This document shows positions 1 through 34,815 of a stretch of 34,815 bases of DNA, piece by piece. The DNA is taken from IMG/VR virus record IMGVR_UViG_3300044533_000998, positions 1 to 34,815 of that record; one strand, 5' to 3'. This DNA comes from a virus. Every line of letters starts with the position of its first letter. Positions within the stretch are counted from its first letter, which is position 1. The translations under genes and the position numbers were made by a program. Below the pieces are notes generated by a model, which saw only the letters and a program-made list of their open reading frames with translations, was not told where the DNA came from and searched no databases.

Positions 1-127
1 AACCTCGTGCTTGTTCTTCAAAATTTTCGGGTAATTTAATAGACTTATATTCTTTGAATATTCTATCCTCGTTTCGACAATCAACTTCACATGCTATACC
101 AATAGTTTCATCTACTCTCCAACCTTT
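1..127. repeat. Contig-end overlap, left copy
   Basis: These 127 bases are identical to 34689-34815. The overlap lies inside one open reading frame, and joining the ends restores that frame without a break. A length of exactly 127 is a common largest k-mer in de Bruijn assemblers, so this is most simply the unresolved overlap of a circular assembly and not a biological terminal repeat. The true genome would then be about 34,688 bp. A circularly permuted headful-packaged genome, or one with cohesive ends joined, would both give this picture. Confidence 0.9.
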
Positions 128-12716: not shown

Positions 12717-13922
12717 TTATGGTTTGTTGATTGCAGTAATTGCAGTAGCAATAGTACCTTTAACAAATGCATTTACATCGTTTGCTTTAACATAGTGTAC
12801 TAAACGTGCTTCTGCTAAAATCGATACCATATTACGTTGGAAGTCGTCATTAACATATCCTACAGTAACATTCATATTCTCACGCATTCTTACGTTAGAT
12901 TTTGACATATCTCCAACCAAGAAATTACCTGCAGTCATCCATGTAGTAGAAACTACTGTCAATTCTGCTAATTTAGGTTGTCCTGTCAAGTTGTCTACGT
13001 AGAAAATTGGGTAAGTGTACTCTCCTGTAGATGTTTTAGTTAACTGCATTTTAGCAACATCAATTGGGTTCAATACTACGTGTGTAGCCATGAATTTATT
13101 TGATTCGATTGTAGCAGCCGCAACACGAATAACATCAGAGATATTTGCTTGTGGAATACTTGTTGCAAATGTACCTGCAGCGAATGTTTGAGCAAATGAC
13201 AACAATCCTTCCAAGTTAGCACCAACACCTGTACCATTCAATAAAGAGTTCTCAATCTGATCCTCTAGCGTTGCTAACAAGTCAGTATTGATTTCGTTAC
13301 GTACAAATGACAAATCTTCCAACATTTCTTTGGATACTTTGATCATTCCTGCAACTTTTTTCACTTCTTTTGATACCTCTTGGTATTTCAATTCTCCTTC
13401 GGTTTTAACACCTGCTTCTGCTGTCCAACCTGCAGTAGAGATTAATGTTTGCTGAATGTAAGTAACGAATTTAGATACTGTACTTCCAACATTTGCGATT
13501 TGACGAAGTTTAGGAACTTGTCTAGCGATTCTGTTTACACCTGCTTCTAATGTTGACAAAGCGATGTTACCTGTGTAATCTCCTGTGATTGTAGTGTCAG
13601 CCTTGATGTCTAACTCTAAAGATTTACCACTTTTCAATTCTTCCACTTGGCTTTTGTAACCTTCTACAACTTGTTCTCCGATAGACAATACACGAGTAAC
13701 TTTGTTGTTTTGTGCTTTTTCAGCCAATGCTTCGATCTTTCCTTCGAAACCTGCGATTGCTGTTTCAATTGCTTGACTTTTTTCAGTCAATCCTTTTAAT
13801 GATTCTACATCATTTTTCAATCCTTCAATGTCACTTTTTGTAACCATAGAAGTCATTTTTTCGTTGAACTTTGTTTCGATTTGTTCAACTACTTGCTCGG
13901 GCGTTAAATTGTTTTCTGCCAT
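12717..13922 (-). CDS. HK97-fold major capsid protein
   Basis: The gene encodes 401 residues. The first 100 or so residues are coiled coil rich in Glu, Lys and Gln, corresponding to the scaffolding delta domain of HK97-family capsids. The segment around residues 105-120 (ELDIKADTTITGDYTGN) is the likely boundary that the prohead protease cuts. The remaining 285 residues carry typical HK97-family features: WTAEAGVKTEGELKYQEVS, the long helix with LEDLSFVRNEINTDLLATLE, NSLLNGTG and a C-terminal GYVNDDFQRNMVSILAEARL. It follows the protease gene by 4 bp. Gene order portal, protease, capsid is the HK97 order. The protein forms the icosahedral shell. Confidence 0.93.
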   Translation of the reverse strand: MAENNLTPEQVVEQIETKFNEKMTSMVTKSDIEGLKNDVESLKGLTEKSQAIETAIAGFEGKIEALAEKAQNNKVTRVLSIGEQVVEGYKSQVEELKSGKSLELDIKADTTITGDYTGNIALSTLEAGVNRIARQVPKLRQIANVGSTVSKFVTYIQQTLISTAGWTAEAGVKTEGELKYQEVSKEVKKVAGMIKVSKEMLEDLSFVRNEINTDLLATLEDQIENSLLNGTGVGANLEGLLSFAQTFAAGTFATSIPQANISDVIRVAAATIESNKFMATHVVLNPIDVAKMQLTKTSTGEYTYPIFYVDNLTGQPKLAELTVVSTTWMTAGNFLVGDMSKSNVRMRENMNVTVGYVNDDFQRNMVSILAEARLVHYVKANDVNAFVKGTIATAITAINKP

Positions 13923-18479: not shown

Positions 18480-19202
18480 TTATATCTTAATTTTTGTTCT
18501 CCATTTCAAGTTTGTTGACTTCAAATCCTGCACTATTGAGTCTCCAAAACTCTTCTTCAAATGCTTGTACGATTCCAAAGTGCTTTCTTCATTTCGAATA
18601 TCTTCGCATCCACCAATGTTATAATTGTTCGTCTTGAATTCAAAGAAGAACCTTTTGTCAATCCACATCTTGCGATTGTAGTGTAGGTTCAATAAGCACA
18701 TGTATTCATCTTCTCCGATCATCGTTGGTATATTCGGGAAGTGCAGCCTATCATCATTGATAATACCCATTGCACATCCTTGAATAAATCCATTCATCAT
18801 TATTGGTCTAGTTACATTGTAGTGTAAAGGACTAGGACTTTTGGAGAAACCGAAGTACTTGATCTCGGTTTGTTCTTTAAGCATGAAGTATGTATCAAAC
18901 AATATACCTGTTACCTCATCAGGACTTAACTTGTCTCTTGATTCTTTTGGTGGCAGATACGTTCTTCTCATTGCCTTGATATCATCGTCTAGCATAAATA
19001 CATCTCCAAACTTATTCTTTGTCCATTCTCTCTTTGCACTTATTCCTATGATGTCATCGCTATGTGTAACGATCTCTACATTCGGATTGTGTTCCTTGTA
19101 CAATTCTTCTTGCGACTTTGGTACAATTAGACATGCGTCATTAACCACTTTTGTAGTGGTAACAACGTCATGTCTTTTATGTGATAGTATGGTAACTTTC
19201 AT
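18480..19202 (-). CDS. GT-A glycosyltransferase, TET/JBP-associated (GREB1-like) type, copy 1
   Basis: The gene encodes 240 residues. Visible features are SHKRHD at residues 7-12, PKSQEELYKEHNP at 28-40, KFGDVFMLDDDI at 64-75 (a DxD-type metal and nucleotide-sugar site), and GEDEYM in the second half where GT-A enzymes place their catalytic acid. This set matches the phage glycosyltransferases described in association with TET/JBP oxygenases and related to the GREB1 C-terminal domain, which are predicted to glycosylate hydroxymethylated bases. The start overlaps the paralogue's stop by one base (TGATG). No hydroxylase or hydroxymethylase is encoded here, so the acceptor is unknown. The family call is from motif recognition. 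Confidence 0.8.
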   Translation of the reverse strand: MKVTILSHKRHDVVTTTKVVNDACLIVPKSQEELYKEHNPNVEIVTHSDDIIGISAKREWTKNKFGDVFMLDDDIKAMRRTYLPPKESRDKLSPDEVTGILFDTYFMLKEQTEIKYFGFSKSPSPLHYNVTRPIMMNGFIQGCAMGIINDDRLHFPNIPTMIGEDEYMCLLNLHYNRKMWIDKRFFFEFKTNNYNIGGCEDIRNEESTLESYKHLKKSFGDSIVQDLKSTNLKWRTKIKI

Positions 19203-19945
19203 CAGAATTTAATTTTTAGAGTTTTCTCCCATTTCATGATGTTTGGTTTCACCGGACTTGGTTTCTTTGGAATGATACTATCTCCAAAGTGTTTCTTCAA
19301 GTACAAATAGGTTTCTTTTCTTTTCTCTTCCGTTCTGTAGTCAGCAACACCGCCTTGTCTATGTTCTGTTTCAGCGAATGCAAATGCAAATCGATCGTCA
19401 ATCAAACACTTTCTATGGTAGTATGCATTGATAGCATTTAAGAAATAATCATCTCCTACGAAGTCCCAATAATCGGGAAAAAATATCTTGCTGCCTTTGA
19501 TTAGTCCGTATGCACCACCTGTAATAAATCCTCTAGTCTTTATTGGTTGACCGCCTGTGTAACTTACAGGGTTTGCAGATCTATTGAATCCGAATAAGTA
19601 CACACCTGTTTCTTTTGCCATATGGTACAAATCTTCTATCAATCCTTCGATCTCTTCGGGTTTCAATACTCGTGTTTTTTCTCCACCGCCTTGATAAACC
19701 GTTGTCATGCTCATGATATCATCATCTATCATAAAACAATCCCCAAACTTTTCATAGATCCATTGTCTCTTTGGACTTGAACCTTTTACTTCATCGGGGT
19801 GTGTTACATAATTCAAATCAGGATTGTGCAATTTGTAATCCTCTAATTGACTCTCGGGAATACAAACTACACAATTTGGAATTATCTTATGAGTAATGAT
19901 AGTGTCATGTCTTTTATGACTTACGATTACTTTAGTTAATGCCAT
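19202..19945 (-). CDS. GT-A glycosyltransferase, TET/JBP-associated (GREB1-like) type, copy 2
   Basis: The gene encodes 247 residues, a paralogue of the downstream gene. Shared elements are SHKRHD (9-14), PESQLEDYKLHNP (30-42), KFGDCFMIDDDI (66-77) and a GDDYFL motif in place of GEDEYM. The C-terminal KHFGDSI is matched by KSFGDSI in the other copy, so the proteins align end to end. The start overlaps the methyltransferase gene by 10 bp. Divergence between the copies suggests two successive or alternative sugar transfers instead of simple dosage. The DNA-base acceptor is an inference from the family; sugar transfer to protein or another target is possible. Confidence 0.82.
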   Translation of the reverse strand: MALTKVIVSHKRHDTIITHKIIPNCVVCIPESQLEDYKLHNPDLNYVTHPDEVKGSSPKRQWIYEKFGDCFMIDDDIMSMTTVYQGGGEKTRVLKPEEIEGLIEDLYHMAKETGVYLFGFNRSANPVSYTGGQPIKTRGFITGGAYGLIKGSKIFFPDYWDFVGDDYFLNAINAYYHRKCLIDDRFAFAFAETEHRQGGVADYRTEEKRKETYLYLKKHFGDSIIPKKPSPVKPNIMKWEKTLKIKF

Positions 19946-31566: not shown

Positions 31567-31620
31567 CTTTTTGAAATTTTGTTTTGTTATATATATGTAA
31601 ATATACGTATTTATTTTATA
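31567..31620 (-). promoter_or_regulatory. Promoter-leader module 8 (first early promoter)
   Basis: Minus strand: AAATAAATACG, TATATTTA (31605-31598), a TA-rich spacer, then AACAAAACAAAA and the ATG at 31566. It lies 39 bp after the lysis terminator, so it starts the early region in the circular map. Confidence 0.82.
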
Positions 31621-31658
31621 TATGTTTCAGTTGGTGCAAATTATTTTTCAGTTTGGGC

Positions 31659-31689
31659 AAAAAAAAACCCACATAATCTATGTAGGCTT
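31659..31689 (-). terminator. Terminator after the lysis cassette
   Basis: Minus strand: AAGCCTACAT pairs with ATGTGGGTTT (one wobble) around a 5-nt loop, followed by nine T residues. The plus strand is also followed by several T residues, so it may work in both directions. It ends late transcription. Confidence 0.9.
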
Positions 31690-31711
31690 CTTTTTAGCAT
31701 TCAAGTCGTAA

Positions 31712-32293
31712 CTAGAATTCTTTTATCAAACAATACGATACCTTATGGCCGCATTTCTCGAAATAATGCATTTGTTTCATGTACTTCAATGTTTCATTTG
31801 GTACTTGACAACCTGCAGACCAACTATCAATCATTTTCTTTGACAATTTGGATTGAATATTGTAATCATTCAAGTGGAAGTTGATTCCAAAAAATCCTGT
31901 TTCTGCTTTACCAAGTTCTTCTGCTTTATCATCACGATCGTTATCTCGAAACACACTTACCATTGAACCCAATTGAAGCAACGCAGGAATTTTACCTTTA
32001 TGCATACCATATGTCCAAACATCATAATACCAACGATCTGATGCCAATACCGCAGCACCTTTTTTGTTGTACTTATAGAAGTTTTTCAATACAGTAAGTC
32101 CTGCATTTGTTGTTCCTGTAATTACATCAATGAATTTTTCTCCTTCAAAGATGTAGAACTTATCATCAAAAAGATTTGGTAAATCAGCCTTACTTCGAAC
32201 ACCCAATATCCATCTGTTGGAAGGAATGCTTCTAAAGGTTTTCAACTTTTTTACTTGTTCAATAAGTTCTTTGTCTGTATATTTTCTTACCAT
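31712..32293 (-). CDS. Putative endolysin
   Basis: The gene encodes 193 residues without signal peptide or membrane segment. The C-terminal half has GFFGINFHLNDYN followed by SWSAGCQVPNETL: a His then an S-x-G-C motif, similar in arrangement to the HG...SxGCxR active site of L,D-transpeptidase (YkuD)-fold enzymes and of cell-wall proteins of Bacteroidota phages. The first half contains DKFYIFEGEKFIDVITGTTN and a DRWYYDVW segment. Directly upstream lies a small two-helix membrane protein (1-bp overlap), as expected for a holin-lysin cassette. The lysin role is supported by context; the fold is uncertain. Confidence 0.7.
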   Translation of the reverse strand: MVRKYTDKELIEQVKKLKTFRSIPSNRWILGVRSKADLPNLFDDKFYIFEGEKFIDVITGTTNAGLTVLKNFYKYNKKGAAVLASDRWYYDVWTYGMHKGKIPALLQLGSMVSVFRDNDRDDKAEELGKAETGFFGINFHLNDYNIQSKLSKKMIDSWSAGCQVPNETLKYMKQMHYFEKCGHKVSYCLIKEF

Positions 32294-32496
32294 TATCTAT
32301 AAGTTTTTTGTGCATGATACAATGCTTTTCCACCTAGAGTAATCGATACAACAGATAGTACAAATACTATCGTTTCATTTTGTACAAATCCTGTCGATAG
32401 GATTGTGCCACTCAATACACCAAGAAAAGTACACCATTTACCGATGTACTTGTCTTTCTTTGGAGTTCTTGATAATATTCTTCCAAATATATTCAT
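32293..32496 (-). CDS. Putative holin
   Basis: The gene encodes 67 residues with a positively charged N-terminus (RILSRTPKKDKYIGK) and two hydrophobic helices, about residues 21-37 (WCTFLGVLSGTILSTGF) and 41-59 (ETIVFVLSVVSITLGGKAL). It overlaps the lysin start by one base and the upstream gene by 4 bp. Small size, two helices and position before the lysin support a class II-like holin that opens the inner membrane. Confidence 0.72.
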   Translation of the reverse strand: MNIFGRILSRTPKKDKYIGKWCTFLGVLSGTILSTGFVQNETIVFVLSVVSITLGGKALYHAQKTYR

Positions 32497-32780
32497 AATT
32501 TTTGCTTTACTAGTTGTGTTATAATTTTTGTCAATTCGGCTACATCTTTGGATATTTGATCTAACTTTAATTGAGTAATTTGCTCGATTCTTGTTATATC
32601 ATTTACTGCCTGTTGTTGCACCATTTCTATCTTACCTTTTAACTTTCCAAGTTCTTCACTAAAATGTAGATTCTTTGCTTCTGAACCTTTTTTATGTTCC
32701 TTGTACTGACTATGCAAATCACGTAAAAAATACGATACTATTGCCAACATTGATGCGATTATCCAATTAAATATTTCCAT
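32493..32780 (-). CDS. Membrane-anchored coiled-coil protein of the lysis cassette
   Basis: The gene encodes 95 residues: an N-terminal membrane segment (IFNWIIASMLAIVSYFL) followed by a long charged coiled coil (EELGKLKGKIEMVQQQ, DQISKDVAELTKII). This architecture is found in i-spanins and in some holin-associated proteins. No lipobox for an outer-membrane partner was seen. It is first in the lysis cassette, and its ATG lies 16 bp after the structured non-coding element. Confidence 0.7.
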   Translation of the reverse strand: MEIFNWIIASMLAIVSYFLRDLHSQYKEHKKGSEAKNLHFSEELGKLKGKIEMVQQQAVNDITRIEQITQLKLDQISKDVAELTKIITQLVKQKL

Positions 32781-32795
32781 TATTTTACAATAAAA

Positions 32796-32940
32796 TGGGA
32801 CTAATTATAATGACTCATAAAGTACCTCATGCGTCATCTTTTATAAAATCCAACTAGGAATGAAACTCGTTAATAGTCCCAACTTTCATTGGTGTTTTTA
32901 ACGAGTTCCAGACCTCTTCGGTTTTCTTAAATTAGTCCCA
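32796..32940 (-). ncRNA. Candidate structured RNA or regulatory leader upstream of the lysis genes
   Basis: The gap between 32954 and 32780 has no ORF. An 11-bp perfect inverted repeat (TGGGACTAATT / AATTAGTCCCA) closes it at 32796-32806 and 32930-32940. Inside, a perfect 10-bp repeat (AACTCGTTAA / TTAACGAGTT, 32864-32873 and 32898-32907) encloses a further CCAA/TTGG hairpin, and ATGAC-x-CAT / ATG-x-GTCAT forms another 9-position stem with one mismatch. This gives a closed multi-branch structure. A T-run does not follow. Alternatives are a small transposable element with terminal inverted repeats, or a packaging or protein-binding site. Confidence 0.55.
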
Positions 32941-32953
32941 TAGCCTTAAACAT

Positions 32954-33909: not shown

Positions 33910-34815
33910 TTAATAGTAAGTACGTTTATTCTTGAACTTATCGCCAACAGTACATGTCAATGATGCTTTTCTAGCAAACTCATCGGGATACTCAATTTTC
34001 GGACTTTCTTGTACAATTACAGGAAGGTCTAAATATCTGTATGAATGATTATGCACGTTGTAATCCGAAATGTACAATTCATTTTCAGACAACAAATACA
34101 ATTCTACCAATGGTCTAATTATACATTCATCTGCAGGATCTGTGATGATTTCATACGAATTTAGATTTTCACGTAGGTTACGTTTCATTTGTCTATCTCC
34201 ATAAATCAAATTATCGATCTCATAGTTTGGCTGTCTAAATCCTATAAATCCATAGAATCTAAATGTACTTGCTACGTTACTACCACTAAAGTTAATACCT
34301 TCGATTTCATGATATCCATCAAACTTCGCACTTACTCGTGCAGTTTTCATAGCATTCTCGATCGAGTATGGTTTCAACTGATATGAACCCCAACTAATAG
34401 TCCCAATGATGCCAGAGATGTTATATTCAATGTACAATTCATAACAACCAACACCAATATCTGAAAGAATAATTCCCCAATTTACTGTTGCATAAAATGC
34501 ATTAGGCTCATTGACAAATTCTATTGCATTTAATTGTTGTGTAAATCCTGTTTCATTGTTTTTGATGTAGAACGCAGCAGAATCATTCTGATCGGATAAC
34601 TTAATCCAAAAACTTGTCAAATCGTTGGTCCATGTTTCTTTTGATTTTTTATCGCCAAGTACTAATTGCTCACAACAACAATCCTTCCAACCTCGTGCTT
34701 GTTCTTCAAAATTTTCGGGTAATTTAATAGACTTATATTCTTTGAATATTCTATCCTCGTTTCGACAATCAACTTCACATGCTATACCAATAGTTTCATC
34801 TACTCTCCAACCTTT
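33910..34815 (-). CDS. Tail protein, C-terminal part of the gene split by the contig ends
   Basis: Reading continues from the left contig end (codon 142 onward) through 34688 to the stop at 33910; the piece from 34689 to 34815 duplicates bases 1-127. The segment includes CCCEQL, then a region of alternating strands (AFYATVNWGIILSDIGVGCY, then ELYIEYNISG). The C-terminal half has many Tyr and Asn. No TTG or other internal start at 34620 is needed once the contig is closed. Probably a tail-tip or fibre protein of about 400 residues. Confidence 0.82.
   Translation of the reverse strand, partial: KGWRVDETIGIACEVDCRNEDRIFKEYKSIKLPENFEEQARGWKDCCCEQLVLGDKKSKETWTNDLTSFWIKLSDQNDSAAFYIKNNETGFTQQLNAIEFVNEPNAFYATVNWGIILSDIGVGCYELYIEYNISGIIGTISWGSYQLKPYSIENAMKTARVSAKFDGYHEIEGINFSGSNVASTFRFYGFIGFRQPNYEIDNLIYGDRQMKRNLRENLNSYEIITDPADECIIRPLVELYLLSENELYISDYNVHNHSYRYLDLPVIVQESPKIEYPDEFARKASLTCTVGDKFKNKRTYY
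34689..34815. repeat. Contig-end overlap, right copy
   Basis: Identical to bases 1-127; see the left copy. Removing one copy closes the circle and keeps the tail gene in frame. Confidence 0.9.

What the first reader, a model, noticed from the sequence alone, without database searches (positions are those of the whole stretch)
32796..32940. Nested perfect inverted repeats form a possible new structured RNA before the lysis cassette
The only long non-coding gap in the late region is bounded by a perfect 11-bp inverted repeat. It contains a perfect 10-bp stem with an internal hairpin and a third stem with one mismatch. Together they close into a multi-branch junction of about 145 nt. Stems this long and perfect are unlikely by chance in AT-rich DNA. 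GGGACTA occurs a second time inside the 10-bp stem loop, so it could compete with the outer 5' arm for the AGTCCC arm, as in a switching RNA.
Basis: partly seen in the sequence, partly recalled or inferred. Interest (0 to 1): 0.78.

Follow-up and report, generated by a model that had tools for sequence, protein, structure and literature searches.

The report
Structured phage RNA following tail-fibre gene
A phage that probably infects Flavobacteria-like bacteria carries, right after a tail-fibre gene and before its lysis genes, a 147-letter RNA that folds into a three-armed shape; two distant relatives carry a same-shaped RNA with different letters at the same spot, so it is probably a real, fast-changing RNA element that arrives together with the fibre gene.

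Summary
The 173-nt gap 32781-32953 is almost filled by a 147-nt element (32795-32941). All neighbouring genes are on the minus strand, and the element folds best there (z -7.0, against -5.1 on the plus strand). It has a 12-bp closing stem P1, an 82-nt arm P2 ending in a GAAA tetraloop, a 30-nt arm P3 and a U-rich tail. Rfam has no match. Two diverged relatives (L048, L074) have elements of the same plan and unrelated sequence at the same place (z -8.0 and -5.3). In all three, imperfections beside the stems read G.U rather than A.C on the coding strand (15 to 1), which points to selection on RNA, not DNA. The element tracks the gene before it, not the lysis gene after it: matched relatives with the same downstream gene (82-83% identical) lack both the fibre C-terminal domain and the RNA. 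The proposed switch is not supported (-28.5 against -57.4 kcal/mol). Best reading: a structured 3'-UTR element of a swappable fibre cassette, most likely acting in cis as a leaky terminator or mRNA-end barrier between fibre and lysis genes. A trans-acting RNA is not excluded. Only three members are known and function is untested.

The parts
32795..32941 (-). Whole structured RNA element (147 nt), read on the minus strand
   Evidence: MFE -57.4 kcal/mol for the 173-nt gap, z -6.98, 0 of 200 shuffles; -56.9 for the 147 nt
32930..32941 (-). P1 5' arm (ATGGGACTAATT)
   Evidence: perfect 12-nt inverted repeat I1
32795..32806 (-). P1 3' arm (AATTAGTCCCAT)
   Evidence: perfect 12-nt inverted repeat I1
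32845..32926 (-). P2, long 5' arm (82 nt): rod with mostly symmetric internal loops and a central 13-bp helix
32884..32887 (-). GAAA tetraloop capping P2; also present in the long arm of L074 and L048
32809..32838 (-). P3, short 3' arm (30 nt)
32874..32881 (-). Second copy of TGGGACTA, inside P2; partly paired in the P2 apical stem in the MFE
   Evidence: D4 and I7; alternative pairing 29 kcal/mol less stable
32787..32794 (-). U-rich tail after P1 (UUUAUUGU); weak in the window, UUUUUU in L048 and L074
32954..33892 (-). t312: fibre-like late protein; its C-terminal domain (about residues 162-312) co-occurs with the RNA
   Evidence: full-length relatives only in L048 and L074; low-confidence Ig/FN3-like beta sandwich
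33910..34815 (-). t301: conserved tail protein upstream of the cassette (its N-terminal part lies at 2-424 across the circle)
32493..32780 (-). c95: first gene downstream, 95 aa with hydrophobic N-terminus; in L082 it follows t301 directly
32293..32496 (-). Small holin-like protein (67 aa), name inferred from position and hydrophobicity
   Evidence: no PHROG or Pfam match
31712..32293 (-). Endolysin-like protein (193 aa)
   Evidence: phrog_3000, phrog_33083 endolysin
31652..31695 (-). Ordinary compact intrinsic terminator after the endolysin (contrast to the element)

Best explanation
The element is a folded RNA in the late polycistronic mRNA. It forms the structured 3' UTR of a tail-fibre cassette inserted between the conserved tail gene t301 and the lysis genes. 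P1 closes a three-way junction of a long GAAA-capped arm (P2) and a short arm (P3) and is followed by a U-rich tract. Most likely it works in cis: P1 plus the U tract acts as a leaky terminator, and the rigid fold as a barrier to 3' exonucleases and to ribosomes moving from the fibre stop codon (12 nt before P1) to the lysis start codon (14 nt after it). This would keep lysis-gene expression separate from and below fibre expression. Shown: the fold is far beyond chance, favours the coding strand, and recurs at the same place in three phages; it tracks the fibre C-terminal domain. Inferred: transcription from the late operon, partial termination or barrier function, effect on lysis genes.
For: Fold and strand: z -7.0/-5.3/-8.0 on the coding strand against -5.1/-4.6/-6.7 on the other, for window, L074 and L048. 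In Watson-Crick-only folds, mismatches beside helices read G.T to A.C 5:0, 3:0 and 7:1 on the coding strand; with base composition favouring G.T at 0.52-0.64 my hand estimate is p about 1e-3. Same plan in all three: closing stem, two branches, long arm first (82/84/182 nt) with a GAAA loop, short arm (30/35/23 nt); interior shuffles reproduce this in 1, 2 and 3 of 1000. U tail: 6 T of 8 after P1 in 3 of 3, against a background of 1.6% of positions. Tight fit: 12/6/14 nt from fibre stop to P1 and 14/20/18 nt from P1' to the next start (coordinates). Linkage: of 109 t301 loci (86 distinct junctions) the only three distinct ones with the fibre C-terminal domain are the only three with the element. 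Matched pairs: window against L082 (downstream gene 82%, t301 70%: neither fibre nor RNA) and L074 against L068 (downstream gene 83%: N-terminal fibre domain only, no RNA). No readthrough or shifted-frame extension explains it.
Against: Only three members; no close homologue with substitutions, so no ordinary covariation test was possible. A covariance model of the window element alone found nothing in 99 loci with default filters; unfiltered, its best L074 hit is the element, but at 10.1 bits against 9.5 for the next. The window's U tract is weak (UUUUAUUG). The same phages end their late operon with ordinary short terminators, so termination alone does not need so large a fold. No RNA data exist. 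No promoter between element and lysis genes was recognised, so a strong terminator would silence lysis: it must be leaky, or not a terminator.
Confidence: 0.45

Rival explanations
1. A trans-acting non-coding RNA: the element is cut or terminated out of the late transcript and works as a separate folded RNA, for example bound to a phage or host protein, or as a decoy for a host RNA-sensing or RNA-degrading system. The linkage to the fibre gene is then a cassette effect or a functional pairing.
For: A compact three-way junction with a constant GAAA tetraloop on the long arm looks like a tertiary fold, more than a terminator needs. P1 followed by a U tract would define a 3' end. Ordinary short terminators suffice elsewhere in these phages.
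Against: No separate promoter recognised; sequence is not conserved even in loops apart from GAAA and a possible GACU shared by window and L074; no partner known.
Confidence: 0.22
2. A regulatory leader of the lysis cassette (switch, attenuator or thermosensor-like element) that controls lysis timing.
For: It ends 14-20 nt before the start codon of the first lysis gene in 3 of 3 (coordinates). A second GGGACTA could in principle pair with the P1 3' arm.
Against: The alternative pairing is 29 kcal/mol worse. Near-identical downstream genes occur without the element (L082, L068). The downstream gene differs between the window and L048/L074.
Confidence: 0.1
3. Three independent, unrelated strong structures (for example oversized terminators) that happen to share the plan; no RNA family.
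For: No sequence similarity; weak CM support; L048 is larger and more branched.
Against: Interior-shuffle frequencies of 1-3 in 1000 per element for the shared plan with GAAA; exact shared position and co-occurrence with one protein domain.
Confidence: 0.13
4. A DNA-level element: a recombination or insertion site of the fibre cassette (integron attC-like folded single strand, miniature inverted-repeat element, cruciform).
For: Gene plus palindromic element behaves as a cassette, present or absent as a unit.
Against: G.U/A.C bias 15:1 for the coding strand; no second copy in the genome; outer arms are not shared between the three elements.
Confidence: 0.05

Closest known systems
Rho-independent (intrinsic) terminators
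   Same: G+C-rich base of a stem followed by a U-rich tract at the end of a gene; a strong U6 in L048 and L074
   Different: Encloses 123 nt or more folded into two further arms instead of a 3-8 nt loop; sits inside the operon; weak U tract in the window. The ordinary form is present at 31652-31695
phi29 packaging RNA (pRNA), recalled
   Same: Phage-encoded three-way-junction RNA of similar size closed by a terminal helix
   Different: No Rfam match to any family; different gene context (fibre/lysis)
GOLLD and ROOL, large phage-associated ornate RNAs (PMC12286853 seen in a search listing; otherwise recalled)
   Same: Phage-associated structured RNAs without coding function
   Different: Far larger; no Rfam match here
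Integron attC sites, recalled
   Same: Sequence-variable, structure-conserved palindrome at the 3' end of a mobile gene cassette
   Different: attC acts as folded DNA; here the imperfections follow RNA pairing rules of the coding strand
RNase III processing sites in late mRNAs of phages such as T7, recalled
   Same: Long irregular hairpin between cistrons of a phage mRNA
   Different: Three-way junction with a closing stem; processing was not testable here

Membership tests
Any Rfam 15 family | Covariance-model score above the family's gathering score | tested here: not met
   0 matches in the window; best E-values 4 or worse with the lax threshold, nothing near a cut-off; no relevant match in L048, L074, L033, L036
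Canonical intrinsic terminator | G+C-rich stem followed by a U-rich tract | tested here: met
   P1 plus 6 T of 8 in all three, background 1.6%; weak in the window
Canonical intrinsic terminator | Short apical loop (compact hairpin) | tested here: not met
   P1 arms are 123 nt apart; the pattern scan with loops of 3-8 finds nothing in the gap
Switching RNA / riboswitch-like leader | Two competing folds of comparable stability | tested here: not met
   -28.5 against -57.4 kcal/mol
Switching RNA / riboswitch-like leader | Conserved with the gene it regulates downstream | tested here: not met
   Downstream genes 82-83% identical occur without it
Retron (msr-msd with outer a1/a2 stem) | Reverse transcriptase gene | tested here: not met
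   No RVT_1 match in the whole record
Type III toxin-antitoxin RNA | Tandem repeats next to a toxin gene | tested here: not met
   No tandem repeat family in the gap among the direct repeats; t312 and its relatives match no PADLOC model
Integron attC | Function as folded DNA strand, no RNA-strand bias | tested here: not met
   G.U to A.C 15:1 on the coding strand. Core-site motif not tested with a tool
phi29-type pRNA | Binding to the packaging motor and requirement for packaging | not testable with these tools
   Needs an experiment; no Rfam model matched
Candidate new RNA family (window, L048, L074) | Same position, same arm order, GAAA loop in the long arm, closing stem plus U tract | tested here: met
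Candidate new RNA family (window, L048, L074) | Compensatory changes in an alignment of homologues | tested here: inconclusive
   L074 fitted to the window model keeps 47 of 51 ungapped pairs, 27 by changes on both sides, 4 broken, 2 further pairs gapped; the fit is biased to the structure and its score is weak

The most novel reading that the evidence does not exclude
A new family of phage RNAs whose three-dimensional plan is constant while its sequence is almost free to change, carried as one unit with a particular tail-fibre domain and acting in trans. The fold would be what is used and the free sequence what escapes recognition, for example as a decoy for a host RNA nuclease or sensor that the phage meets in the host its fibre selects.
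Probability: 0.15. Interest if true: 0.8.

Novelty: new variant of a known kind. Interest (0 to 1): 0.5.

Why it matters
Phage genomes are so tightly packed that a 147-nt folded, non-coding element inside the late operon needs a reason. This one recurs with the same architecture but different letters, which ordinary homology and covariance searches miss. It is tied to a tail-fibre module, the kind of part that phages exchange when host range changes. If it works as proposed, it shows that exchanged fibre cassettes bring their own RNA punctuation to protect lysis timing. It also gives a concrete search strategy (position plus architecture) for fast-evolving RNAs.

Tried and rejected
Homologues by DNA similarity: none in the phage collection for the window, L048 or L074 element beyond short chance matches, and in the first 80 related loci only short matches, the best a 33-nt match in L033 on the opposite strand. 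Homologues of t312: none in viral contigs by its own peptides; the three-row alignment returned only L048; L074 and L048 queries returned only themselves; none among named phages; none in GTDB genomes for t301 or for the fibre domain.

L033 (346-nt gap at the same place, no fibre domain): z -1.9 on the coding strand and -3.7 on the other, so not counted as a member. L036 (244-nt strong fold just before its endolysin): an array of AAATGACGG repeats, operator-like, unrelated. Stop-codon readthrough or frameshifting stimulated by the fold: all frames after the fibre stop close within 24 codons. A wide 150-nt energy scan of the first 80 loci was too blunt to be useful by itself. Covariance model R1 was searched in 99 of the 168 non-window loci then held and, unfiltered, in two.

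Function of the fibre C-terminal domain: no match in PHROGs or Pfam for window t312; for the other two members only weak PHROG matches, best a tail protein at E 0.013; no NCBIfam or PADLOC match; PDB by sequence only a chance hit at E 0.29. Whole-protein model poor (pLDDT 43), viral fold search uninformative. C-terminal model pLDDT 62; Foldseek best E 0.24; VIA-align best Z 6.0 to FN3/Ig-like domains, with the T5 bent fibre at 5.3. Middling Z is common, so only 'beta sandwich, probably' is claimed.

Literature: (listings with starts of abstracts) showed no description of such an element; passages of PMC9723704 were read, which use predicted intrinsic terminators and a class of 3' regions arising from partial termination in a Flavobacterium. 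The library lacks most subscription papers.

Rows dropped before counts: the rows for L094 repeat L074; one search left out L094, L177 and L178 as duplicates, gaps that touch a locus end, and the L048 gap because a 65-aa ORF overlaps it; one of its 96 gaps (window, minus-strand 13060-13234) is in fact a 59-aa ORF. The 109 loci fall into 86 distinct junctions. In one search nine loci include two from one contig.

Full report
What the window is. The window is a whole virus record of 34,815 bases. Its two ends share a perfect 127-nt direct repeat, so it is best read as a complete circular assembly. Minus-strand ORFs include terminase, portal, protease and capsid genes, a DnaB-type helicase and an endolysin-like gene. 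The named phages whose proteins resemble t301 are all Flavobacterium phages, 32 of 32 records, so a Flavobacteria-like host is likely but not shown. No tRNA and no Rfam family was found.

The element. All neighbouring genes are on the minus strand. Read on that strand, from 32941 down to 32795, the sequence folds into a 12-bp stem P1 closing a three-way junction of P2 (82 nt) and P3 (30 nt). P2 is a rod of helices separated by mostly symmetric internal loops, with a central 13-bp helix and a GAAA tetraloop. The free energy of the 173-nt gap is -57.4 kcal/mol against -30.2 plus or minus 3.9 for 200 shuffles, z -6.98; the plus strand gives -41.3, z -5.11. Among 96 distinct intergenic gaps of 110-350 nt in this and related phages the window gap has the lowest z (the L048 gap was not in that set).

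Relatives. A scan for the endolysin gave 80 loci; scans for t301 and for the gene after the element gave more. The gaps of L074 and L048 at the same place attracted attention because they fold strongly. A scan for perfect inverted repeats of 9 bp or more around low-energy, mostly non-coding stretches, over 169 sequences and 1.30 Mb, returned 35 rows; the only rows directly after t301 plus a fibre gene are those of the window, L048 and L074 (L094 is the same contig as L074). z is -5.29 for L074 and -8.03 for L048 on the coding strand, -4.59 and -6.65 on the other. DNA searches find no similarity between the three.

Same plan, different letters. In each, P1 leads to exactly two branches: a long 5' arm (82, 84 and 182 nt) that carries a GAAA hairpin loop, then a short 3' arm (30, 35 and 23 nt). 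When the interior is shuffled and P1 kept, this plan including the GAAA loop appears in 1, 2 and 3 of 1000 shuffles. The plan was defined on the window, so L074 and L048 are the tests. L048 is larger and has extra branches inside its long arm. After P1 come 6 T in 8 bases in all three, against 1.6% of positions in the background. A covariance model made from the window alone is too weak to prove homology: nothing with default filters in 99 loci; unfiltered, the element is the best hit in L074 (10.1 bits, next 9.5) and a part of the element is the best hit in L048 (11.9 bits, next 10.9). In that fit L074 keeps 47 of 51 ungapped pairs, 27 of them by changes on both sides, but the fit leans toward the structure.

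RNA rather than DNA. If the palindromes were kept for a DNA function, mismatches next to the helices would be G.T and A.C about equally on either strand. In folds that allow only Watson-Crick pairs, which score both strands nearly alike, the coding strand shows G.T to A.C 5:0 (window), 3:0 (L074) and 7:1 (L048). G.U pairs are tolerated in RNA of that strand only. With the base composition I estimate by hand a chance of about 1 in 1000.

It belongs to the fibre gene. In L082, whose t301 and downstream gene are 70% and 82% identical to the window's, the t301 stop is followed at once by the downstream gene: no fibre gene and no element. In L068, whose downstream gene is 83% identical to that of L074, only the N-terminal fibre domain is present, and no element. 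The downstream gene of the window is not detectably related to that of L048 and L074. Of 109 loci with t301 and enough sequence (86 distinct junctions), three distinct ones have the fibre C-terminal domain, and these three have the element; six distinct junctions with only the N-terminal domain have none. This makes it a 3' element of the fibre cassette, not a leader conserved with the lysis genes. The C-terminal domain is modelled, with low confidence, as an Ig/FN3-like beta sandwich, which suits a tail or receptor-binding part and gives no hint of a nuclease or transposase.

How it may work. The element fills its gap: 12, 6 and 14 nt separate the fibre stop codon from P1, and 14, 20 and 18 nt separate P1 from the next start codon (window, L074, L048; coordinates). 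A terminating ribosome would cover part of the 5' arm and an initiating one would touch the 3' arm (inference). P1 plus the U tract resembles a terminator with a large folded insert. Ordinary compact terminators with long U runs follow the endolysin in several of these phages (31652-31695 in the window), so the element is not simply the usual terminator. No promoter was recognised between it and the lysis genes, so full termination would silence lysis. I therefore favour partial termination or mRNA-end protection that keeps lysis expression below fibre expression. The constant GAAA loop suggests a tertiary fold and leaves a trans-acting role open.

The proposed switch. Pairing the second GGGACTA with the P1 3' arm gives -28.5 kcal/mol against -57.4, and a transcript that ends before the P1 3' arm already folds P2 and P3 at -44.3. 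I regard the switch as unsupported.

Verdict. A real, probably functional, sequence-hypervariable structured RNA linked to a tail-fibre module, with three members, not in Rfam, and not found in eight paper searches. Its function is inferred, not shown.

Noticed in passing
window 1-127 and 34689-34815: Perfect 127-nt direct terminal repeat: the record is a circular, probably complete genome; t301 runs across the join
   Followed up: yes
window 31567-31711: Gap after the endolysin holds an ordinary compact intrinsic terminator (31652-31695) and, in several relatives, TAnnTTTG promoter-like sequences (motif recalled): probable end of the late operon and start of the next one
   Followed up: partly
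L036 4742-4985: Array of direct and inverted AAATGACGG repeats folding at about -99 kcal/mol directly before an endolysin gene, with TATATTTG just before the start codon; looks like a regulator-binding array
   Followed up: partly
window 18480-19945: Two adjacent ORFs matching a glucosyl-HMC glucosyltransferase family (phrog_842), next to methyltransferase-like and ParB/nuclease-like ORFs: possible DNA base modification
   Followed up: no
window 32784-32811, plus strand: Sigma-70-like promoter match with 11 of 12 consensus bases pointing into the element on the antisense strand; such matches are as frequent as in shuffles
   Followed up: no
L086 and L087 (contig IMGVR_UViG_3300020044_002317): One contig carries the c95/lysis region twice in inverted orientation, possibly an assembly artefact
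   Followed up: no
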